A stretch of DNA of 64,000 nucleotides from Diplosphaera chodatii (taxonomy: Eukaryota > Chlorophyta > Trebouxiophyceae > Prasiolales > Stichococcaceae), in assembly GCA_032358165.1 (NCBI GenBank), contig JAALGY010000051.1:558001-622000 (forward strand), in the 5' to 3' direction. The notes under the pieces were generated by a model. That model ran no database searches, was not told where the DNA came from, and was given only the letters and a program-made list of their open reading frames with translations. Position numbers and translations under genes: made by a program. Below are positions 40,207-55,141 of this stretch, one piece after another. Each line of letters starts with the position of its first letter. Within the stretch, counting starts at the first letter, position 1.

Positions 40207-43200
40207 TCAATTGGCAGGCACCTTGCGGATCTGGGCCGAGCGCACGACATCCTGGTTCTCAGGGCGGATGTCGCTGACAACAATGACCAGGTCGCCTGGC
40301 TGCACCAGGTCGCGCGCCTTCAGCAGGCTGCAGCACAGAATGCACGAGTCTCGGTGCAGCCTACGTCAGCTTGCAAGGCAGCTGGCAAGTGCAGTTGGAA
40401 TGCTTACAGACACTGACATCCTGCTGAATGATCCTCACAGTGCCGAATATGAGTTGCAGGGAGCAGGATCTGCACAACTCAACAACATCGTCAAGCTGAG
40501 CAGATGTAGCGCTTCAAGTGCGAAGGGCACCTGAAGGTGCGGCTGACGTTGGCCTCGGGGTCCGCCTCGAAGTCCAGGCGGAAGGGCATCACGCCCCACC
40601 GCATGTTGAGGTGCTGCCGTACCTCCTGGCTGTCTGCAAGTTGCAAATGGACGAGTGTTCACTCAACTTTCGAGAGAGCTGTCAGCAGCATCGGCTGTGG
40701 TGCATGCAAGGATACCATCCATTGAACCGCTGGCAAGCTGCGAGGGCCGACCTGTGAAGGCGAAGATCGGCGCATCGGGCCGACACCGGCTGAGGAAGTT
40801 GGCCATGTAGCCGCGGCGGGTATAGACGAAGATGGCGGACGCATCCAGCGCATTGGCCATCGCCACCGCGCTGGCGCACAGCTGCTCGCTCACCCGCCCG
40901 TCCTGCCCCTTGGCAATGTCCGGCAGCACAATCTCGCCGTGCTTCTCCTGCCTGCAATGCAAGCATGTCAAGCAGCTCTTGAATACAGATACCCTGAGCA
41001 GCAGGAGCAAAAGGTCCACCAGACTCAGAGTGCTGTACACCTGCTTCACTGCAGGGTATGCACGAACACATGTGCACGCAGGCCAAGCATAGAGAAGGAC
41101 ATGTCCAGAGGCTCGGGCCTTCTGCGAATCAAGCCGGTACCTGCACCACTCCTCGATGCGCGTGGACACCTGCCGCAGCACGCCCAGCGCCTTCTCGGGG
41201 TACGCGCCGATGGCGGACTCGCCGCTGAGCATCAGCGCGTCCGCCCGCTGCCGCACCACATCCGCAATGTCCGCCACCTGCACACGGAAGATTCAAGGAA
41301 GCTTTGTACATGGCTGTGCATGTGTGTGTGTGTGGGGGGTGGTGATGGGCGGGCGAGCGGCTCAACTCAGAAGCGTGCCGTGTGCAGAAAGGGTTGCTGA
41401 TGCAGCAGCGCCGGCACACCTCGGCGCGCGTGGGCGTGGGGTACTCGATCATGGACTGCAGCAGGTGGGAGGCCACGATGACGGGGCGCCCCATCTGCCG
41501 GCACCGCATCACCACCTCCTTCTGCACGCTGGGCACATCCTCCAGCGGGATCTGCGCGCCTGTGACAGCATGGCGGCATCACATCACATCGCGCTTGCAG
41601 TCCCGCAGATGCGTGTTACCTCCAAACACATTGCTGACAACCAGCGACAGGCGCACAGTTGTGGTTTGGCCTGCACGGTCACCCCCAGAAGACCTGGTGT
41701 TCTTGCCTGAGAGCCATGAGAGCATCATGCAGGAAACTTGCTATCTGAGATGCAGCGTGCTGCTGCTTACCTAGGTCACCGCGGGCGACCATGACGCCAT
41801 CAGACGCCTCAACAATGTCCTGCAGATTGGGGACGCTGTCGAAGGACTCGATCTTGGCGATGATCTCGATGGGCCGCCCCGAGCGCGCTTCACAGTAGCT
41901 CTTCAGGTTGTTCATCACGTCCGGCGTCTTGACAAACGACACGGCGATGAAGTCCACACCCTCGCTGATCGCAAAGTCGATATCCAGCCAGTCCTGTGCA
42001 CGAAGCATGCATGGCCTGGTCGATACTGTAGCTTGCTTTGTGCCTGACATTACAAACCACCTGATGGTGCGCTCTTCAGCTGCGTGACATATGGCTACAC
42101 TGCTGGCAACTGATTTCGGGGTGCAGGGGAGCATGCACAAGCTTGCTGCCCTGGATTCCCACCTTGGACGACAGCACTGGCAGCATCGCGTTGCGAGCGC
42201 GCACGATTTGGCCGTCCCGCTGGAATGTCAGGTTGGCGCGCGACAGGATCAGTCCGGGGTCCACAACACGCGCGACCACATCAGGGCCCGCCTTGGACAC
42301 GACTGACAGGCTGACCATGCCGCCGTCAACCACAATTAGATCGTCGACCTGTAGGCCACACATGACATGCATCACTCAGCTCAGCGCTCTCCACTGCAGC
42401 TGATTGACACGCTTGTGCCGGGCTTGCCACCCACGACGAGCCACTCAAGGGATGGTTAATCGATCATATGGTGGACAATGAAGTGGGATGTTGGCGTGCA
42501 CTCAATCGTGGGCCGAGCCCTAAGGCACCTCACGGTGCCACATGCATTCTGGGGAGCAAGTCGACACAACAGCTGGCCCTTCCCACTGCACCACTGACCT
42601 GGACATCGTCCACGAAGGCGTCGTAGCTGACTTTGAAGGCGACACCGTCCAGCGTCGCTGGGTCCCTGATCGTGAAGGTGTACTCGTTGCCGACCTGCAC
42701 AGGCGGGGCTGGCTCAGCTACCCTGCAGCCTGCTAAGCCTGCGTCCCTGCTCTTGACGTGAGCCATGGCTCGCCGCCATGCAGCGAGGGCATGCAGGGTG
42801 CCTCACCTCTGCTTTGATGGGCTCCTTGAGCTCGTTGGTGTGCACCTCGCTGCCCTCAGTGTCCACCATGATCGCCACAGAATACCTGCAGACCAGCACA
42901 TGAGAAGGTTTCAATGCCAAAGGCACAGTCGTATTGTCGGTTCCTCAAAATTGCTGGCCGGAGCCCGCAGAGCAGCGACCGCTGTGGCGTACCCCTTGCT
43001 CTTGTTGAGCTGCCTGATGTGGGCGATGACCTCACGGTGCCATTCGTGCGAGCCGTGGCACATGTTGAGGCGCGCCACGTTCATGCCGTTGGCCGCTAGT
43101 GTGGCGAGCGCCTCCTTGGAGCTCGACGCCGGCCCGATGGTGCAGATCAGCTTGGTCCGCCTGGTGCTGCGTGGGCCTGCGAAACAGCGGCGGAGCATGT

Positions 43201-43718
43201 GTCCAGCGCGCCGAGCTCAGGGCCGTAGTACCCTGAACGGGTCATGCAGATCGTGCGTTGAAAGCAGATGACGACATCCACCACACCCGCATGCTTTCCA
43301 TGCAACACATCCGGGTGTCACGGTGCAGGTGATATGGATGACAGCGAGCAAAGGACCAGCGCAGCGCTGGATCTCGCTAGCTGGCGGCGGCGGATATGAT
43401 CTGACTCGTGCCCAGCTCACCGTTGTCGCTGAGCTCCTTCTCGAGCACGGAGTCGCCCTCCAGGTCCGTGCTGTCCAGCACCGTCTTGCGCTTCGGGGCG
43501 CCGTTCCCCATCTGGGCCGGCACAGGCGTCTCGTGCGCCGCGTGCTTCTCCTCATGCAGCTTCGTCTCCACCTTCTTGCCCTCGCTGTCGATCACCTGCT
43601 TGCTGGCCACCGCTGACACGCTGAGCTGGGACGGCCTGGCACGCGGGGGCGCGACCCGCAGCCGCTGCAGCCCGGCATGTTGCACTCCCGAGCATGTCGG
43701 GGCTCGCAGGCCCCTCAT
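40207..43718 (-). CDS. PK: Pyruvate kinase, plastid type
   Basis: Transfers phosphate from phosphoenolpyruvate to ADP, giving pyruvate and ATP; in plastids it supplies carbon for fatty-acid synthesis. From the ATG at 43716-43718 a basic, Ser/Ala-rich leader runs to about residue 50. The catalytic barrel starts [20 protein letters not shown] and [20 protein letters not shown] (43198-42985). Later exons: [20 protein letters not shown] (about 42870), the B domain (42700-42600 and 42350-42150), [20 protein letters not shown] and [20 protein letters not shown] then VMVARGDLG (41990-41775), [20 protein letters not shown] (about 41490), a block [20 protein letters not shown] (about 41240), and the C-terminal regulatory domain (40960-40750, 40640-40515, 40330-40210) ending RKVPAN. 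The key Lys of KIESFDS and the metal ligands are present. TEGSEVHT replaces the usual DTKGPEIRT, a departure also seen in some plastid-type paralogues, so catalytic strength is uncertain. Confidence 0.9.
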
Positions 43719-45041
43719 GCTGGGCGATCGCCCCCGGCGCCACTCAAGCTGGGGTGCGGGGCGGCGAACGAGAAGGCACACTGTGTGCTGCGGGGAGCGG
43801 CCCTCGCAACCCTACAATGCTCGATTCTCTCAGCCGATGGTGCAGAGCAGTCGTCGCGAACATCCCTCCAGGAATTGCTGGCTCCCCTGCTGCGACCGGT
43901 TGATAGGGCTTTCCTGCACGATTATCGCCAAGAAAGCTTGCCGCACGCCATTACGCCCTCAGCGCCGCTCAGGCGTAACGCTTTCATCGTGCCACAAGTA
44001 GCCAAGGCTGCAAGGTGGGGCGCCGTGCTGCAGTCAGACATTCGTGAGGCCACCAAACGTCCTCCAGCAGCTTACTCAGCAGGCCGGACGGGCCGCACAC
44101 GAGGAGGTGCCGCGCAGCTGACGGCGGTGCGCCTCTCACTTGTAGTTCCATCCATAGCAAGCAGGATGCGGGTTGAGGGGGTTCCAGCGGTACGCAAGCC
44201 GGGCAGTGCACTGCATGCACGCGAAACTGCGACAACCGCACCCATGTCGCAGCGAGTTGCCGCGGACGTTACTTGATACGCTCCTCACAGCAATAGCATC
44301 TGTCTCTACCGTTGCATCGACGTCGTTCGACCAGCAATGGCGTGGTATATGGGCTTGACGTGCGAAAGAGTACCCGGCGATCCGTTAAGATCAGTTGTGC
44401 TGCATCTTGTCGAGGTGACACAGGTGAGGCGGAGACTGGTCTCAAGCAGCGTTTCCTGCCCTCGTAAGCTGTCTCGGGTGGTTAGGTAGGAAGCCTGTGG
44501 GCTGTGTGCCGCCTGCACGCGGGATCTCGCTAGGTTGGTTGTCGGGCAACTGCCATTGTTCCCCCGCCCGCGGGCGCACGAAGCTGCCCGGCTTCCGCGT
44601 CATATGCCTGCACCAAACCAACAGAGGCGCACTCGCCTCAGATCGTAGAGGATTGGGTCGCTCTACATCTACCTTTTGCCGCTGCACCCAGCACGTGGGT
44701 GTACTTGCTTGGGCCAACAGCCGACTGCCGCCGCGTTAGTCGTTACGACAGCAGAGTCGAAGCAAGGACCTGCTCAATATAGCTGGGCAAATCACATGAA
44801 ACAGCTCACGAACGTGACTGCTCCCCAGGACATGCCATAACACCGCATGCTTCTGGGCCAGGCAGGCAGGCAGGCAGCATGCTGACACTCAGACATTGCG
44901 CCTGACCTTGTTTTGTCATCTTTGCAGGCCCTCGCTGTTGCCGCAAGCTGAAAAAAACAGTCTGCCGACGATCGGGCGCCAGCATCTGACCGGGTTGGCC
45001 CCTAGCAGCAGACCAGCAGCGGTGCTCGGGGGCGGGCTGCC
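43719..45041. other. Divergent intergenic region between pyruvate kinase and the GT2-GH9 gene
   Basis: About 1.3 kb with no recognisable exon, holding both promoters. Long minus-strand frames (for example 44442-44717) show no family signature. A short tetranucleotide repeat sits near the 3' end. Confidence 0.4.
44858..44877. repeat. Short AGGC tetranucleotide repeat
   Basis: Four to five copies of the unit CAGG/AGGC in a row, about 165 bases upstream of the GT2-GH9 start codon. It may be a simple microsatellite. Confidence 0.6.
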
Positions 45042-48000
45042 ATGGTGACCCTGACCCCCAAGCCGAAGGAGAAGACCCGGCCGCCGCAGAGCTTCTCGTC
45101 GCGCTCCTCCCGCACATCGCAGGACGGCTCGTCGCAGTCAGGTGCGCGTGCACTGCAGCGTGGTTCAGCATGTGCGCTGGCACATTCGGCACCACTGCAG
45201 TCCGCTGAGCAGACTTGCTCATCGGCAGGCCTGTATCGTGACTAATGCAACGTGCTGAGCAACAGGCGTGTACAGTGGTAGGCCAGCCAGTTCAAACCGG
45301 ACATCGTGTGCGCAGGCGATGACCTGCTGCCGTACTACACGACGCACTGGAAATGGGGGTCGCTCATGCTGGTGCTGCTGTTTTGCGCGTCGTGGGGCTT
45401 CTACTTCTATGTGCGGGTGCGCTACACCATCCCGCGCAACTACGTGTGGTACTCCTGGACGATCTTCGGCTTCGAGATCCTGGCGAGCAGCAACATGTTC
45501 ATCCACTGCCTCTACATGCTGAAGATCCGGAAGTACCACCAAGGTGAGTTGATGGCTTACCATGCAAGTAGCAGCAAGTTCTGCAACCCTGAGGGTGCAT
45601 CGCGCACTGCTCTGATCTTGTGTGTCACTGTATCTGCAGCAAGTAGCTAATCAGGCAAAATCCCTGCTGTGCAGTCATTGACGACAAGGGCATGACGCCG
45701 CTCATCCACGACTACCATGTGCGCGTGCTGCTGCCCTGCTACAGGGAGACGCCCGAGATGGTGCGCACCGTCTGCAAAGCAGCTTGCAGCCGTGCCTCCT
45801 GTTTTGTGCACGCCCTGTCAGACTTTACAACGGACTTGGGTGGTGAAATGCCCGGCACTTGCGTGAACACAAGTTCGGACAATCTTTGCAGATTCGGACG
45901 ACGGCGCAAGCCGTACTGGCTGCACATGTGCCGCCTGGCTGCCGCCGCACGGTGTACGTGTGCGATGATGGCAAAGACCCCGTGAAACGGGTGCGCCCCA
46001 GCTGCACTCGGGAAAGCCCCGCTGCTTGTGGGCAGCAGCTACTTGACACATGTTGCTGATGAGACCCAGGACAGTGCACCTTGCATGGACGGGGTTGGTA
46101 TGCTTGGCTGGACATGGGTGTGCAGACTTCGAACTGTTGCTGTGCGCAGGCCTGGGTGTCGAGCAGGGCCGCATTGACCTGCAGTACATTGCGGACCGCA
46201 TCCGCACCCCTGGCGAAGTCAACGGCAAGTCGGCCAATCTGAACAACGCGCTGAACCATATCTTCCCGCCCGGCACTTCCATTGGCTTCAACGAGGTATG
46301 TTGCACAGATCATGGGGCCTTGCTGTGCAAGTCCTGCTGTGCCTGCAGCCACAAGGCCTACAGAGGAAAGCAGCATTCCAGATATGTTCCTACTCTTTTA
46401 GATGGTCTAAAGGACTATGGAGTTGGCTAATGTCCTTGCAATGTCACATACGCAGGTGGTCGCGGTGTTCGATGCGGATCAGGTGGCGCGGCCCAACTTC
46501 TTCACGCGCACGCTGCCCTGGCTTCAGGACGGCCGCGAGTCGGTGGTGCTTACGCCCCAGTACTTCCACAACTTCGACGTTAAAACCGACATCTTCAGCC
46601 ACCGGCAGGCCGCCTACTGGAACATGATCCTGCCCGGCCAGGTCAGCCGTGCTTTTGCAAGGCTGAGACTGCTGCATGTCATCCTGCGGAATCTGACCAT
46701 GACAACTCCAGCTTGTAAAGCTGCAACTGGAACGACCTCTGAGGACATTCGATCCTGCAGGATGCACTGGGCTCGATTGCATGCACGGGCTCAAACTTCC
46801 TGATCCGTGCGGCGCACCTGGCAGAAGTCGGCTACTTCCCCACCTACACCATGGTGCGCCTGCCTGCTTGTGGACAGCACATCCATGGTTTAGCAAAAGG
46901 CGAAATTGAGATTATCAAGGACCTGAGTCGTGATGACCCAGCCTAGTGCACAGGACACCTCAGCTGGACGTCCTGCTGCCTTCTTGGAAGCTGGACACCA
47001 GATCTATAACGGTGCATGCTTGCATTGCAGGGCGAGGACACCGCGCTGGCACTGGAGCTGCAGTGCCGCGGCCGCACCGGCGTGTACCTGCGGGAGCAGC
47101 TGGCCGTGGGCGAGGCGCCCGACGAAGTGCGCGCCATCTGCCAGCAGAAGTCCCGCTGGTGCAAGGGCGGCATGCAGATGTGAGCCTCGACACCTTTGCT
47201 CTGGGTTGTGGTTTCCAGCACGTCCATGACTCCTGACCACATACCTGATCATCTGACTGAGCATGGTCACGCTGTGGGACTGCCAGTAGGTAATGGCCTG
47301 GATTGGGCCTGCAGTGATGTTCCTTACCGATACAGATGTACTCATGCCCTCTGCTGCCGTGCAGCTACCTCAACTGGATGCACTGCCCGCTGCTGCGCCC
47401 AGAGCTCAACCTGTGGGAGCGCGTGCTGTGGGTGTACGGCATGTGGGTGAGTGGACAGGCTCGCTCCGTACTTCACACGCTCCACAACGTAGCCTTCTGA
47501 TATGCGTTTCCGCCCGGAGGCACATGATGTAGTGGTGTCTGTGAAAGTCAGCTGCTGACAAGTGCGAGGATGGCATGCAGGGCTATGTGACCAACATCCT
47601 GACGACGCCAGTCATGCTGCTGCTGCCAGTCATTGGTGTCTTCTTCGACGTCATCCCAGGTACGACCAAGACCCACCACTGCAACACCCTGATGCTGATA
47701 CCTATGATGTCTGCACAAGCACTTGCTGTAGCATTTCGCTCCGCATCCAGGCACGGCTTGCTGATTGCGCCTGCAATATGCTGTGCAGTCGTGAACAGCT
47801 GGTGGTTTGCCGCGAGCTTCACCTTCTACATCTTCGCCATCTACGGCGTCATCTACCTGGGGGCTGGCAGCTGGGACGTCGCGTCCGCCACCTGGTACAC
47901 CACTTGAAATTGCATGCGCTCCCTGATGGTCCTCGTCTAATGTCATGATTGCACTGTTGCACGCACTCTCTGCACGGCCGAGGTGCTAACACAAGGTCTG

Positions 48001-51000
48001 CAGCAACACCAATCTTCACTGATGTCTGCGTAGGTACACCAACACCGCAAACTCCATCTTCTGGTTCCACTATGGCAAGTCCATCTGGAACATCATCTGG
48101 GGGTCGATCCGCAACAAGTGCGTCTCTCCTGCTTCAGTAACCCATGCACCTAAGTCGTGTCGTATGTGCATTCCGTCAGCTCAGCGCTGGGTAGTGATGA
48201 ATCAAGCTGACTTGACTGGCTGTTGTTTGGGTTGAACAGGCAATCTACCTTCAAGGTCACGCCCAAGAGCCCAGCGGCCATCACTGCCATCACCGCCAGC
48301 ATCCCCAACACCTCCTCCGGCACTGCCCCCGCTGCACCCCCCAAGCCTGCCAAGGTGCGAATCCCCCCGTCTGGTTGTGGAGAGCATGTGCAAACCCTTG
48401 GACCGACGGTTATGCTGCACCATGGCAGGTGTGCGAATCAGAACCTTGCTGTGAGCCTCTCTACGCAACAGCTTCCGTCCCGTACCTGCAGGCTTCACGG
48501 CAGTGCTGCATGGGCGTGTACTTCAAGGACATCTGGATGTCGGTGCTCACCTTCTCGCTGCTGTCCGCCACCATCGGCATCGGCATCTGGCGCCTCATCG
48601 CCGATGGCATCGTGCGCAGCACATGGAACTTTGGGTGAGTAACGATTGACAATGTCATTCACATCCGACAGAACTGTGCATCTCCCATAACGATGCTGCT
48701 TCTTAAGGCCAAAGGCAAGCTTGCAACACTTGCCATGCAGATTGCTGGTGTCGCTGGGCTGGGCGCTGTTCAGCATCTTCCCATCGTACCTGATGCTGCA
48801 CTACTGCGCCTTTGGCAACAAGGGCCTGCGCATCGCCTGCACCATGTCCAAGCTTCTCATGACGGTCACCGGCCTAGGTGAGTCCATACCAAGAAGCTCT
48901 GAGCATTAGCTCCTTTGCCCAGATAGGAACCTTGTACCTGACACCTGGATGCATATGCGACTGCCAAGGTGCACCGGCTAATTGTACTCCAATCAGAGTG
49001 ACATGCTGAGTGCAACACGTATGGTGCAGGTGTCATTGCGCTGCTGTTCTGGCTGCAACCCAAGGAGTATGACTACCAGAAGCCGCTGGGCGACAGCTTC
49101 CTGTTCTACGAGTCACACCGATCAGGTTTGCTGCCAGCATCCAGCTGCTGTGACCCAGACAACTTGATGCGGGGCCCCTGCTTCACGCAGCAGTAGCCTC
49201 CTCATGCCCAGGCGATGACTGCTTTGTATCATTGCAACCGGACGATGCGATGTTGCCTCTGACATTGGTGATGGTGCTGCTCACAGGTGTGCTGCCGGCA
49301 ACCAACCGGGTGCCGTGGCGCGGCGACAGCGGCCTGTCTGATTGGATGGCCAATGGCACCGAAGGCATCCGCCTGGTGCGACAAGCTGCTCTTGCCCTGT
49401 ATGCCAAACATGAAGCTACTGTCCAAGCAGGAACTTCACCAGCTGTTGCTGACCGTCGACTGTGTCAGATGCTCATAAGCAAGTGGCCTGTGGCTGCAGG
49501 TGGGTGGCTACTACGACTCGGGCGTGTCCTTCGTCAAGTACACCTACCCAATGGCGACAACGACTGCGCTGCTGTCCTGGGGCCTGCTTGCCTTCCCCAA
49601 GGTATTTAACAAGTCAGCAGTGAACGAGTGTCTACACCTGTGCACTTATGTCTGATATCAGCTGCACCGCTCAGGTCACGGAAGCACAAGCAGGTACCTG
49701 AGTGGGCATTCTGTATGATGCTTGCAGGGGTACGACAATGCCAACCAGACCAAGTACGCCCGCGAGGCCATCAAGTGGGGAGCAGACTACCTGATGACTG
49801 CACACATCAACGCCGACACCTTTGTTGCTCAAGTTGGCAGCCCCCTGATTGACGGTGAGCAATGTAAATGAAGAATTGTTGCAGTTTGCACATGGTCAGA
49901 TGACTCCAGTCCACCCTCGGACTTGTTCCAATGCATCAGGGCAATGCCTTACACGTCGTTGTCCATCGTGCTGTACAACCGAATGTGCTTCTGGCCTGCA
50001 GGTGGCAAATGGACGCGGCCGGAGCAGCTGCAAGAGAGGCGGCCCGTGTACATTGTGAACGCCACACGTGCAGGCAGCGACTTGCTAGGCTCAGCATCTG
50101 CGGCGTTGTCGGCTGCAGCAATGGCCTTCCGAAGCACAGACGTCAAATACAGTCTCAAGGCCGCAAACCATGCAGTGCAGCTGTACAAGTGAGTCTGGCG
50201 GCTTGCGGAATGTGTGCCAGCCAAACCGTGGTTGCATGCTGATCTACCAGCGCATGGTGTTGGGCTGCCTCAACCATGCAACATCCGCAATCTGACCAGG
50301 GCCCTTCACCATGAGCAGGCTGGCAAAGCAGCGGCAGGGCCTCTATGCACAGTGGCTGCAGTCCGGCGGCAACAATCTGGCTGGACCCTACGCTTCTGCA
50401 AGCTACCAGGACGACCTCGCCTGGTGCGCTGCTGTTGTTGCGTGTGCTGTGCCGCTGACCAGTAGCAGCTGGTGACACCCACCAACAGCATGCATGCATT
50501 CAGGACGTGTAGCAGACGTTGCTGTCATGACGAGTCCATGGGGTAGGTATGCCAACCGCTGTGATCCTGCTGCAGGGCCGCCATATGGCTGTACCGCTTG
50601 ACACGCGACCCTCAGTACCTTCAGGATGCCGCTGTGTCTTACAAGCACTACCTGGATGTGAGCAACCTCACGCTGTATGTGAACGATAACTGCCGTGACC
50701 GCAAAGATGACATTAGGCGAAATGATGCAACCTGTCACTCCATGAATGCTACCAGTAGATGAGAAGCAGCGTGTTGATGGTATCTTCATCATGCTGCAGA
50801 AGGAGGTGACGGAGGCCAACTCGTACGTTTTCGACTGGCAGAACCTGGCTCCCGGCGTCGCGCTGCTGCTGGCTGAGGCCACGAACTGGCAGCCACCCAG
50901 CTACACGGTGCGCCATTGAATACTTGCTGCCATCTGACATTCCTCTGCGGTCAGCACCTGCAAACTCGAATATGGCAGCTGCAGGTGTGTGGCATGATTG

Positions 51001-52359
51001 GTCCAGCGAGCAATGTGATGCTTCAGCACTTCATGCGGGTCTGCTGAGCCAAAACCCCCTCGGCTGTGCAGGTGGACGGCATCCGTCCGGAGTACATGTC
51101 CGACGTGGAGGGCTTCCTGGGCAACTGGATGAGCCGCTACGGTAGCGACACCGTGCACTACACCCCGCAGCTGCTGGCCTGGACCAACACCTCGGTGCGC
51201 CCATACCAAGCCTGCAGTCACAGCTGATCCGCCAGCAGACCTGAGATTGCAAACGTGGCCATGTTGTCCAGTGCTGCCATCTAAAGCTATTGTCTGCAGT
51301 CGTGCTGCTGAGCAAGTGCCCTCCAGATATGTTGCTGACAGCGGGCAGGTTCCACGTGCTGCAGGCACCGCTGCAGACGGCGGCCAACGCGGCCTTCCTG
51401 GCCAAGGTGTACGCCACCGAGCAGAAGGGCAAGGACAGCGTCGTCAGCTGCTGGGCAGGTGTCCATCACCTCCGCTTCCTGTAGTTGGTCACTTCTGTTT
51501 TCTGTGTGCCACTTGTTGAAGTTAGTGTCAGGCTGCCATGGAGGCGCTGTATGTCCTGAAATCTATGTGGAGCCTCGATGGCTCTGCCCTGTTCAGTAGC
51601 CATGTCATGCCTGTGCCAACCGCATTGTTGCTGCCCGTGCAGAGAGCCAGGCGCGCTACATGCTGGGCATGCGGTTCCGCGGCAACTTCATGGTGGGGCT
51701 GTCGGACAAGAGCCCCAAGCAGCCGCGTGACCGGGCCGCCTCGTGCCCCGTCAACTACCGCACCCCCTGCAATGCCGCGACCGCCGCCATGCCCGACCGG
51801 CCCAACCCCCACGTCATCACCGGCGCACTGGTGAGCGTTGCTCGAATAAGCCTGCAGCGCAATCCATGGCTGCCAACTGATTATCTTGGCCACTGCAGCA
51901 ACAACACAAGTAGCGCTGCTGAGGCAGCTTAGTGCAGGCGCAGCTCGGCAACCCCTTGGCGAGGCGGACTGCTACACCGTTTCGACGAAGTTGTGGCTGA
52001 ATTAGACAGCAAACTCTCCGCAGGTGAATGGACCCGACAGACGCGACAGGTACCACGACCGGCGGAACCACCCCAACTCGGGCATATCGCTCAACAACAA
52101 CGCCGCCTTCACCGGCCTGCTGGCGGCGCTGTCGCAGCAGCCGAAGGATCACTGGAACCAGTGCAATGCACGGCCGAAGTACTTCTGGCAGCCAAGTGCG
52201 TTCCTCGCAGGCAAAGCAGAGCAGCTCTATGCATGCCCATCTTTTTGGTTGGCGTCGCCAGTTGAAGGTCTTGAGATCACCAACATCGTGTGTTGCGCCC
52301 ATGTGGCTGTGTATTGATTGTGTCGTGCTTTGCTTGCAGGCAACTACAATCTGTTCTAG
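45042..52359 (+). CDS. Fusion of a cellulose-synthase-like GT2 enzyme with a degenerate GH9 endoglucanase domain
   Basis: About 28 exons give a protein of roughly 1,120 residues. Exons include 45042-45141, 45316-45543, 45675-45760, 45892-45990, about 46150-46295, 46455-46641, 46761-46853, 47031-47179, 47365-47446, 47581-47659, 47789-47894, 48034-48117, 48240-48354, 48492-48634, 48741-48877, 49030-49125, then the GH9 exons. Two N-terminal membrane helices precede the catalytic domain. Processive GT2 residues are all present: VYVCDDGKDP, VVAVFDADQVARPNFF, GEDTALALEL and QQKSRWCKGG (QxxRW). NGKSANLNNAL and FKVTPK also match. About five more helices follow, then the GH9 domain. The expected product is a beta-1,4-glucan, by family. 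The plant-type zinc finger, plant-conserved region and PilZ domain were not seen. The join between the exons ending 45990 and starting near 46150 is the only one I could not settle; all others keep phase. Confidence 0.85.
49075..52359 (+). other. GH9 (endoglucanase-like) domain of the fusion protein, catalytic residues lost
   Basis: Exons 49030-49125, 49287-49375, 49500-49601, 49728-49854, 50002-50188, 50319-50423, 50576-50657, about 50770-50907, 51072-51194, 51365-51458, 51643-51830, 52024-52195 and 52340-52359. The domain opens GDSFLFYESHRSGVLP and RVPWRGDSGLSDW, as in KORRIGAN-type GH9. Where active enzymes read GGYYDAGD, this reads GGYYDSGV, so the second Asp (the usual catalytic base) is Val. 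In the closing motif, aligned around GPDRRDRYHDRRNHPNSGIS, the catalytic Glu position is Gly. The conserved HHRxS motif is replaced by RDRAAS in KQPRDRAASCP. Overall fold markers such as PMATTTALLSWGLLAFPK, YQDDLAWAAIWLYRLT, LQTAANAAFLAKVYA and NPHVITGALVNGPD are well kept, so the loss looks selective rather than general decay. Confidence 0.8.
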
Positions 52360-53051
52360 ATCGTGGCGGCGGTCAGCGGGGTGGGCCAGCCGCAGCAGGG
52401 CGCCGGCAAAGCCCTGCAGAATTTAGTGCAGCAGCAGGAGCAGCACATCTGGTTCCCTTCATACTCAGAGCTGGTCAAGCATGAAATCACGTGCGCTGCA
52501 ACATATCTGCAGCACACAAGTCGCAGTGCTACCGTCGTGGAAGGGAGTTGTCGACCTGTACAGACGCGCCCTAGATGACAGTTAGATAGTTGTTTTGCAG
52601 AACTGAGTCACTTGACGGTTGACAGGAGTGCTCATTAGGAGCCTCCGCTGGGGTGTACCGTACGACATCGATTGGTTGCAGAGGGTGCCTGCACTGCTTA
52701 GGTTTGGAGCGGCAAAGCTGTCTTGCAACTTCAGGGCCTGATGCGGAGCGTTGGCAGACTTTTGTGTGTTTGTTGGCTGCGCTTGTTATCTCTCCCAGGG
52801 CCATGGCGCGACCTCCTGGGCGGCGTTGGTGCTGCTGCATTGATACTCGAGTGACTGGTCTTCTTTCTCAGCATCCTGCGTGTCTGTGCACCTTCAATTC
52901 AATTTGTAATATGCAAGTGTGTCATCAAGACAAGCATACAGATCATACTGCTGCCACCTACTTCCTGTACATGCAACGAGCTTCCCAACCTCGGTATGTC
53001 TGAGGTTGTTGACCACATGGTACCTCACAGATGGACCGCAAGTCACTTGCA
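52360..53051. other. Convergent 3' region
   Basis: Between the TAG of the fusion gene and the stop of the DUF89 gene. A short open frame directly after the TAG (52363-52484) is Gln-rich but begins inside the presumed 3' untranslated region; no gene recognised. Confidence 0.4.
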
Positions 53052-55141
53052 TCATGTTGCTGGGTCAAACTTGCAAACGATGTCATACAGCCGGCCATTG
53101 AGCTCTGCGGCCACCTCGGGATGCTTGATCATGCCCAGCTTCAGCGCATCAACCCTGAAGCGGGCTCGGAGGTTGGTCTCAATCGAGCGGCCCATGCCCT
53201 CAAGGACGACCAAGTCTGTATCCTGCGCCACCGCTGCAACCCCCGACGACACCTGTGCCACGGTTTATGAACCTTGCACTGGAGCTGCATGCTGTGGCAG
53301 AGCTTCACCTCTGGCAACCATCGCTCTCACCACGTCATGCACCAGCCAACAGCACTACGCACATGCGTACCTGACGCAGGTCAATGACACACATGTCGGT
53401 GCCTGTCGACACCACCTGCAGGGTCCCCTCTGCAAGCGCATGTTGCAGCGTCACATCTGCTGCCGCGGCCTCCTTGACTACCTGCGTTGAGCACCAGCAG
53501 CTGCTGCGTGCACTGCAGCAATGGATCATGGCAGCATCCTGCTACAGCATTCACACACGGCAGGTTGTTGAGCCTTGCACCTGCTGCAGCTCGGCTGCAG
53601 TGATGTCGTTGATGGAGGGCGTCTCATTCGCTGCAAGGCTGACACTCGTGCCACGGCGTATCAGCTCTCTGGCGAAAGGCAGGATGCCTGCAGGGTGCAA
53701 ACACCGCCCAACCTCCGATGCGCTGCGGGATGAACTGCACAAGCACTTGCAATGCAATTGCACAGGGAGCTGAGTTCAGCGCGCACCTAGCACAGCGTCA
53801 GAGCCAGCGTTGTCCAGGAAGACGATAGCATGTTTGTGCGGCTGAGGCCTTGTAAGCGCATCCATTGCAGCATCCAGATCGTCCACTGCCCAGGGCCGAC
53901 TGACCAGGCCGTCTACGGTCTGCCGAAACGGCACCTGCGGCAGAGGTCACACAGGCCTGGTCCCTGCACATTGTTGCTTGTGAAAGACACATCGTGGGCT
54001 TTGACCAACGACTTAGCTGACGGTCATAGCCTACATCTCTGCGATGTTCACGGGTATGTGGCGGCAAATGAAGGCCACCCACCCCGCCAACAGCATTGAA
54101 GAGCTGACTGCTTGCGGCGGCGCCCAGGTCAAAAATGTTCCCGGCGAAGACGCCCCGCAATGCGGCCTCCATGCGCTCACGCGGATCTGAAACGGCGTCA
54201 AGATCCCTGACGGCACAGCCAACGTCAATTCAACCTGCAATCGCAGTGATGACTGTGCAAAAGCCTCAACAGCGCAGAGCACAGGTGACAGCCGCATGAG
54301 GATGGCCATAGCAAAGGACGTATATACACCTGATGACAGTCGGGAGCAAGGCCAGCGCCTTTGCATTCTCCTCCGCCTTCACTGTTCGAAAGGCATCCTG
54401 AAAGCCTTCTGCCCTCAAGCACCGGTCCCTGCCCATGCACATGACCCTCGAATGCGACCTGCCCTTGCTCCATGTTGGGACTGTGGTCAGAGAGCCGTCA
54501 GGTTGACAATGACACAGCATGCCATCACATACCTGAGAGCGGACAGGCTGATGCAATTGACTGGTTCCGGCTCGAAGCCAGGCAGCGATGCGGTTGGATT
54601 GGCAGCAATACGCTGTAGCAGTGCCTCATATGACATGACGAACCGCTGCACTGCCTCCTGCTCCATAAGCCGATCAGAACATCTGTAAGCTTGTGTGCTG
54701 CTTCGGTAGGCGGTTCTGCTGCTGTTTCTTTGTGCATTACCCAACTCCAGCGCGATGCACCTGGCGGCTGCTGTCTGGCACTTCTGGGTCGGATAGCGCC
54801 ATGCGCTGGAACTGTGGGATGCTCTTCCTGCATGAGAATTTTGGATCAGGGCGTTCACTTCACTTCTCATGGTTACATAGATATTTCCCAGCAACAGAGC
54901 CCCACCTGAACACCTCCAGCCAGTCTGCCAGTGTAGGCTTGCCGGGCTCAGACCTGCACAGATCATGGACCACATGAAGTAAAGGGTGCTGAGCGTAGGC
55001 AATGCTCACACCAGCACTCTGGAAGCTTTGTCAGAAGAATCATCACCTCTTCGCAGTATAGTCGAAAGTGTGCGGTCGGTACCCATCCAATAGCAGTGGA
55101 AACTGCACAAGGTGCGGCGCTTCCACCTGCTTCACAGCCAT
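53052..55141 (-). CDS. DUF89/ARMT1-fold metal-dependent phosphatase (4'-phosphopantetheine phosphatase type)
   Basis: A stand-alone homologue of the C-terminal domain of plant pantothenate kinase 2 and of Arabidopsis At2g17340-type proteins, which remove phosphate from damaged or surplus 4'-phosphopantetheine. The ATG at 55139-55141 gives MAVKQVEAPHLVQFPLLLDG. The exons then run: SEPGKPTLADWLEVFRWGSV (about 54955), RFVMSYEALLQRIAANPTAS (about 54640-54560), FRTVKAEENAKALALLP (about 54385), MEAALRGVFAGNIFDLGAAA (about 54170-54110), VPFRQTVDGLVSRPWAVDDL and IVFLDNAGSDAVL (53930-53805), GILPFARELIRRGTSVSLAA and NETPSINDITAAELQQ (53695-53580), GTDMCVIDLRQ (about 53400), LVVLEGMGRSIETNLRARFR through LYDIVCKFDPAT (53250-53052). 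The metal-binding DNAGSD motif is intact. There is no kinase domain. Confidence 0.83.

What the first reader, a model, noticed from the sequence alone, without database searches (positions are those of the whole stretch)
45042..52359. One gene encodes a cellulose-synthase-type GT2 enzyme fused to a GH9 endoglucanase domain
Seen in sequence: about 28 plus-strand exons, nearly all joined with matching phases, run from two N-terminal helices through a full GT2 domain, more helices and then a complete GH9 fold to one stop codon. The deciding exon is 49030-49125: its first half (GVIALLFWLQ) is the last membrane helix of the synthase and its second half (GDSFLFYESHRS) is the start of GH9, so no stop or new start separates the two. 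Known: plants use separate proteins (CesA and KORRIGAN GH9), bacteria separate BcsA and BcsZ, and tunicates fuse GT2 to GH6. I know of no described GT2-GH9 fusion, but I could not search.
Basis: partly seen in the sequence, partly recalled or inferred. Interest (0 to 1): 0.93.

Follow-up and report, generated by a model that had tools for sequence, protein, structure and literature searches.

The report
Cellulose synthase with built-in dead cellulase
One gene, likely from a green alga, joins a cellulose-synthase-type enzyme to a cellulase fold that has lost the acid and base residues of its cutting site, so that part is predicted to hold or guide the new sugar chain rather than cut it; the bare fusion was reported in a related alga in 2012, and the lost cutting site is what makes it of interest.

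Summary
The fusion is real. Twenty-eight GT-AG exons (45042-52359) give one 1102-residue frame: seven predicted membrane helices around a GT2 domain, then a complete GH9 fold. A profile aligner found the same exons. Nine other loci of this genome carry the same fusion. So do 32 public proteins, several from contigs of only 3.6-5 kb.

[quoted passage not shown] Second, "endoglucanase" is not supported. The window's GH9 lacks the catalytic Glu, the base Asp and subsite His, Trp and Arg residues. Of 42 fusions only 5 keep the catalytic set; 35 do not and 2 could not be fully scored. With catalytic columns masked, the degenerate ones form one clade (95/88), which suggests one loss after fusion. 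The dead domain stays under purifying selection (dN/dS 0.04-0.18).

Tunicate CesA is reported to carry a GH6 domain missing its catalytic Asp, so a synthase carrying an apparently disabled cellulase may have arisen twice. I infer a glucan-binding or guiding role at the channel exit; this is untested. The window copy also lacks one base near 46160.

The parts
45042..52359 (+). GT2-GH9 fusion gene, 28 exons: 45042-45141, 45316-45543, 45675-45760, 45892-45990, 46167-46295, 46456-46641, 46761-46853, 47031-47179, 47365-47446, 47581-47659, 47789-47894, 48034-48117, 48240-48354, 48492-48634, 48741-48877, 49030-49125, 49287-49375, 49500-49601, 49728-49854, 50002-50188, 50319-50423, 50576-50657, 50800-50907, 51072-51194, 51365-51458, 51643-51830, 52024-52195, 52340-52359
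   Evidence: model; profile aligner; exon/intron conservation; coordinates
45354..45515 (+). TM1 and TM2 (aa 47-71 and 74-100), predicted
   Evidence: helices in the AF2 model of the 83% identical P0001, mapped; hydropathy for TM1
45716..47371 (+). GT2 domain (aa 124-359) with CDDG (45961-45972), DADQ (in 46468-46482), GED (47031-47039) and QQKSRW (47142-47159)
46150..46166 (+). stretch with one base missing relative to L025 (between 46160 and 46161); treated as intron in this model, so six residues are lost
47411..47865 (+). TM3 and TM4, predicted
47872..48109 (+). helix aa 439-471, taken as an interface helix
   Evidence: 'interface' is inferred from comparison with BcsA/CesA (recalled)
48250..48267 (+). 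FKVTPK, matches the FxVTxK gating-loop motif of cellulose synthases (motif recalled)
48522..49052 (+). TM5, TM6 and TM7; seven helices in all put the C-terminus on the outer side (predicted)
49030..49125 (+). exon 16, carrying the end of TM7 and the start of GH9
   Evidence: the same join in P0001
49065..52122 (+). GH9 fold (aa 618-1072), catalytically degenerate
   Evidence: fold; 57 on the model of P0001; residues
49524..49529 (+). Val-Ser where GH9 controls have the catalytic base Asp of D-x-G-D
49854..50003 (+). Gly744 (codon split by intron 19) where GH9 controls have a subsite His
51192..51376 (+). Ser945 and Gln949 where GH9 controls have subsite Trp and Arg
51726..51728 (+). Arg1005 where GH9 controls have His (PHH motif)
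52081..52083 (+). Gly1059 where GH9 controls have the general-acid Glu

Best explanation
The gene encodes, in one spliced frame of a predicted 28-exon model, a cellulose-synthase-type GT2 protein with seven predicted membrane helices that runs straight into a GH9 cellulase fold lacking the catalytic acid and base, and this dead GH9 part is predicted to sit outside the membrane and would likely bind or guide the newly made glucan instead of cutting it. Shown by the calls: the fusion in sequence, the GT2 motifs, the GH9 match, the missing residues, low dN/dS in both halves, and a clade of degenerate fusions with five intact fusions outside it. Predicted: the topology (inner N-terminus, GT2 inside, seven helices, GH9 outside). 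Inferred: an ancestor of these green algae fused a synthase to a working GH9, as in the five intact relatives; catalysis was then lost once, and the fold was kept because a tethered glucan-handling surface at the channel exit helps chains emerge or assemble. That the product is cellulose is inferred from motifs and structural relatives only.
Against: No activity, binding, localisation or product was measured. Binding is an inference: subsite Trp, Arg and His residues near the cut site are lost too, so glucan affinity may be low. The domain has diverged generally as well: of the columns conserved in controls, aromatic and charged ones are kept in 57% of cells and the others in 72%, so not only the cutting site changed. 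Sequon enrichment is modest. The window copy has the one-base problem at 46160, so this copy itself may make a damaged GT2. Other catalytic chemistry in the remodelled cleft cannot be excluded.
Confidence: 0.58

Rival explanations
1. The GH9 domain is a working endoglucanase that trims or releases the nascent glucan, like KORRIGAN or BcsZ.
For: The GH9 fold is complete. Five fused relatives and the partial P0094 keep all catalytic motifs. One of the two Asp residues of the D-x-G-D motif is kept in the window (Asp673).
Against: The general-acid Glu is Gly, the base Asp is Val/Ser, and subsite His, Trp and Arg residues are replaced; the Glu is absent in 35 of 35 scored members of the clade.
Confidence: 0.05
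2. The GH9 domain is a passenger: a decayed leftover kept only because it is attached.
For: The catalytic set is gone and the domain has diverged generally. Some relatives carry long insertions in GH9 (P0016, P0017, P0073, P0022), and related GT2 proteins without GH9 exist (21 GT2-only rows, some of which may be partial).
Against: GH9 dN/dS is 0.04-0.18 in five pairs; seven fold residues are kept in 35 of 35 rows; the domain is kept in named trebouxiophytes and in Haematococcus lacustris and Chlamydomonas sp. UWO 241.
Confidence: 0.15
3. The fused protein makes or handles a polymer other than cellulose, or the remodelled GH9 cleft has a different catalytic function such as transglycosylation or binding of another wall polymer.
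For: The sequence search of solved structures matched six BcsA-type chains and no plant CesA; TED is GED in the window; several cleft residues changed.
Against: The structural relatives of the GT2/TM part include BcsA and plant CesA, all cellulose synthases; QxxRW and the FxxTxK motif are present.
Confidence: 0.18
4. Two neighbouring genes have been joined by mistake.
For: No RNA from this organism was available.
Against: Exon 16 spans the join; introns 14-16 hold no TGTAA; 10 loci and 32 public proteins have both domains in one frame, some on contigs of 3.6-5 kb.
Confidence: 0.02

Closest known systems
GT2-GH9 proteins of Coccomyxa subellipsoidea C-169 (Blanc et al. 2012, PMC3446292; passages seen)
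   Same: [quoted passage not shown] likened there to tunicate CesA
   Different: That text treats the domain as a cellulase; in the passages I saw it does not mention loss of catalytic residues or intact sister forms, and it gives a narrower distribution
Tunicate CesA (GT2-GH6) (PMC10334666, PMC6523144; passages seen)
   Same: Seven membrane helices, GT2, hydrolase domain right after TM7; the GH6 lacks a key catalytic Asp and is called likely functionless
   Different: Hydrolase is GH6, a different family, so presumably joined independently
Plant CesA plus KORRIGAN (GH9) (recalled; KORRIGAN as part of the plant complex is mentioned in the PMC10334666 passage)
   Same: A GH9 works with a cellulose synthase
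   Different: Separate proteins; KORRIGAN is thought to be catalytically active (recalled); the GT2 here matches BcsA by sequence
Bacterial BcsA / BcsZ (recalled) and the BcsA structures
   Same: GT2 motifs and fold; a cellulase partner
   Different: BcsZ is a separate enzyme; no GH9; BcsA ends in a cytosolic PilZ domain (recalled), whereas here the C-terminus is predicted outside

Membership tests
Cellulose-synthase-type processive GT2 | DDG, DxD, (T)ED and QxxRW motifs | tested here: met
   CDDG162-165, DADQ, GED308-310 (Thr is Gly), QQKSRW345-350 in the window. By the script: ED and QxxRW in 42 of 42 fusions, DxD 41, DDG 40, FxxTxK 41; the misses are P0004 and the N-terminally truncated P0027 (P0004 shows CDDG by eye, so the script mis-placed it)
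Cellulose-synthase-type processive GT2 | fold shared with BcsA and CesA | tested here: met
   [not shown]
Cellulose-synthase-type processive GT2 | makes beta-1,4-glucan from UDP-glucose | not testable with these tools
   needs biochemistry
GH9 endoglucanase | GH9 fold | tested here: met
   [not shown]
GH9 endoglucanase | catalytic D-x-G-D and general-acid Glu | tested here: not met
   window GGYYDSGVSF and NSGISLNNNAAF; the controls have DAGD and the Glu in 5 of 5
GH9 endoglucanase | hydrolyses beta-1,4-glucan | not testable with these tools
   predicted absent
Algal GT2-GH9 fusion of Blanc et al. [quoted passage not shown]
   Coccomyxa viridis P0004 and C. elongata P0007 have the same two domains; the C-169 proteins themselves were not compared
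Tunicate CesA | hydrolase part is GH6 | tested here: not met
   Pfam lists four families, one GH9 and three GT2, no GH6
KORRIGAN-type membrane GH9 | GH9 anchored by its own single N-terminal helix (recalled) | tested here: not met
   GH9 follows a GT2 domain and seven predicted helices

The most novel reading that the evidence does not exclude
Green algae and tunicates independently welded a cellulase fold onto the exit side of a cellulose synthase and then switched off its chemistry. In core green algae the switch-off happened once, in a common ancestor, and the dead domain has been kept ever since as a built-in glucan-handling part. This would mean that the old puzzle of why making cellulose needs a cellulase has, at least in part, a non-catalytic answer.
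Probability: 0.42. Interest if true: 0.82.

Novelty: new variant of a known kind. Interest (0 to 1): 0.62.

Why it matters
Cellulose-making systems in several kingdoms use a cellulase as partner (KORRIGAN in plants, BcsZ in bacteria, GH6 in tunicates; partly recalled), and why is an old open question. Here nature has run a separation-of-function experiment: the same fused architecture exists with an intact GH9 (P0021, P0027, P0074-P0076) and with a degenerate but conserved GH9 (the window and 34 other scored rows). Comparing the two tests directly what the cellulase fold does besides cutting. It also warns that some algal proteins now named 'cellulase' or 'six-hairpin glycosidase' in databases (P0002-P0004, P0017) are likely synthases with a dead domain.

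Tried and rejected
Two separate genes: rejected (exon 16, 10 loci, 32 public proteins). Alignment error at the catalytic sites: rejected, since three MAFFT alignments with different row sets gave the same window residues, and neither Val676 nor Ser677 is Asp however the one-residue shift is placed. P0015 and P0022 were left out of the degenerate count because their C-ends are broken. P0027 could not be placed in the GT2 tree (N-terminal part missing); P0094 lacks the GT2 domain and was counted apart. The tree left out six near-duplicate rows (L022, L024, L025, L026, L033, P0074). In the GT2 tree the order of intact and degenerate fusions near the base has only moderate support (81-86), and some GT2-only rows sit inside the fusion clades; these may be real losses or partial models. 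My first motif count picked wrong QxxRW matches in some rows and was redone. The first dN/dS run failed for L023/L024 and was spoiled by a frame error in L021/L022; the second also dropped codons in windows under 50% identity, which lowers dN/dS. That filter changed nothing for the window/L025 pair (0.060 and 0.045 both times); for L032/L033 it lowered the values from 0.098 and 0.078 to 0.030 and 0.046. The sequon count used 38 of 41 rows; P0004, P0023 and P0081 were skipped by the script. The protein searches scored about 8000 candidates each and the own-genome searches only their best candidates, so all counts of relatives are lower bounds. Literature: ten searches, open-licence PMC papers only; the last found the 2012 report of the fusion. 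I saw passages, not whole texts, of eight papers. None of these passages reports loss of the GH9 catalytic residues in the fusion, but subscription journals and supplements were not searched. PMC6032398 (passages) states that catalytic acids are conserved in all GH9 cellulases it compared, microalgal ones included; the term 'cellulose synthase' does not occur in its main text. The organism was not identified; 'green alga, likely Trebouxiophyceae' rests on the named relatives and recalled taxonomy.

Full report
THE OBSERVATION. The reading frame was rebuilt exon by exon: 28 exons from 45042 to 52359, 27 GT..AG introns of 106-193 nt, one frame of 1102 residues, 123.9 kDa. A second method, a splice-aware alignment to a profile of seven relatives, gave the first 26 exons exactly and the start of exon 27; it stopped before the last exon. 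Exon 16 (49030-49125) carries the end of the last membrane helix and the start of GH9. Between the copy in the window and its sister copy L025, exons are 92.3% identical without a gap over 3309 columns, while introns are 63% identical with 584 gap columns. That contrast supports the model along its whole length, junction exons included. Introns 14-16 contain no TGTAA (the green-algal poly-A signal, recalled); three occur between the start codon and 53100, two inside introns (46714, 49863) and one after the stop codon (52905).

ONE FLAW. At the start of exon 5 the window lacks a single base that L025 has, between 46160 and 46161. With the ordinary acceptor (exon from 46150) the frame breaks; with the AG before 46167 the frame holds but six residues after CDDGKDPVKR are lost. 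L025 reads KRAWVSEQGRVDLQYI there, and P0001 has AWVAEQG at the same place. This may be an assembly error, a damaged copy or a real short form; I cannot tell which.

HOW COMMON IT IS. In the same genome the PF00759 search found 38 exon matches, which I sort into 14 loci. Gene models on 17 loci (the 13 GH9 loci besides the window, and 4 with GT2 matches only) gave 9 full GT2-GH9 fusions, 4 GH9 without GT2 and 4 GT2 without GH9; two of the nine (L022, L023) needed a one-base frameshift in the aligner. With the window that is 10 fusion loci, in five close pairs. Three protein searches returned 32 public proteins whose precomputed Pfam lists show both GT2 and GH9; all 32 went into the counts. Named hosts among them are Myrmecia bisecta, Elliptochloris bilobata, Coccomyxa viridis, C. 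elongata, Trebouxia sp., Chlorella sorokiniana, Chlamydomonas sp. UWO 241 and Haematococcus lacustris. P0001 (83% identical over 100% of the query) comes from a 4282-nt contig, which cannot hold 3.3 kb of coding sequence plus the 4 kb of introns that the window has; it is therefore most likely a spliced transcript. P0019 carries a Trinity transcript name and P0078 a name that looks like a transcript-archive accession (recalled).

HISTORY. A tree of the GH9 part with the catalytic columns masked puts the degenerate rows in one clade: support 91 with 35 rows, and 95/88 with 30 rows after near-duplicates were removed. The intact P0021 group and P0027 lie outside, next to the controls. The simplest reading is fusion with a working GH9 first and one later loss of catalysis. 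In the GT2 tree (85 rows) the intact group also lies near the base of the algal rows, with moderate support. A group of seven GT2-GH6 proteins (with the GT2-only P0116) is sister to the 62 rows that hold the algal fusions, the other GT2-only rows and the long-branched P0111. dN/dS between the paired copies is 0.014-0.063 for GT2 plus membrane part and 0.041-0.175 for GH9 (a filter on poorly aligned stretches lowers some values, see Tried and rejected).

TOPOLOGY AND MECHANISM. The model of P0001 (pLDDT 87.3, pTM 0.81) has two helices before GT2 and, after it, two long helices, one taken as an interface helix, and three more helices before GH9. Seven crossings put GH9 on the outer side if GT2 is cytosolic. 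N-glycosylation sequons agree: 180 in 22564 GH9 residues against 43 in 11179 GT2 residues, shuffled expectation 145 and 50, in 38 of 41 rows. GT2 motifs and the FKVTPK motif are in place, and the GT2/membrane part matches BcsA and plant CesA. The inferred mechanism: glucan is made inside, passes the channel and meets a tethered, non-cutting cellulase fold that binds or guides it. Binding itself is untested, and loss of some subsite residues argues for caution.

WHAT WAS KNOWN. The Coccomyxa subellipsoidea genome paper (Blanc et al. 2012, PMC3446292; [quoted passage not shown] So the fusion is not new. Tunicate CesA has seven helices and a GH6 after TM7 (PMC6523144, passages), and its GH6 lacks a catalytic Asp and 'seems functionless' (PMC10334666, passages), whereas the 2012 paper credits it with cellulase activity. 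What I did not find in print, within the ten searches listed and the passages read, is the loss of the GH9 catalytic set, its likely single origin, the intact sister fusions, and the parallel between two fusions that both appear to be dead.

Noticed in passing
window 42860-53480 and G000:C13:134485-145157: The fusion gene and both flanking stretches tested have a collinear second copy on contig C13 (90% and 75% DNA identity over the aligned parts of the flanks), and all five fusion genes come in pairs (dS about 0.15-0.44). The assembly looks like two diverged subgenomes or an old duplication.
   Followed up: partly
L028, L029, L030, L031: The four GH9 loci without GT2 in this genome also lack the D-x-G-D motif (they read EAGG) but by eye keep a Glu at the acid position. 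No GH9 with the full catalytic set was seen among the 14 loci.
   Followed up: partly
P0104-P0108, P0110, P0112, P0113: GT2 proteins with a GH6 domain (PF01341); the seven of these eight that were in the GT2 tree (all but P0107) group together near the algal rows. 'EPD' is present in 5 of 8 and P.RDC in 0 of 8 (motifs recalled), so the state of their cutting site is unclear.
   Followed up: partly
P0111, P0131, P0148, P0157: GT2 proteins that also carry a GH5 domain (PF00150): another synthase-hydrolase combination.
   Followed up: no
P0070: GT2 protein that also carries PF03935 and PF00722 (beta-glucan synthesis/GH16-type domains, names recalled).
   Followed up: no
P0017 (Chlorella sorokiniana): The public model joins a carbohydrate-kinase domain (PF02782) in front of the GT2-GH9 fusion and is named both D-ribulose kinase and six-hairpin glycosidase; possibly a wrongly joined gene model.
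   Followed up: no
window 42911-43216, minus strand: An open frame that reads like pyruvate kinase (recognised by eye, not tested) lies upstream on the other strand.
   Followed up: no
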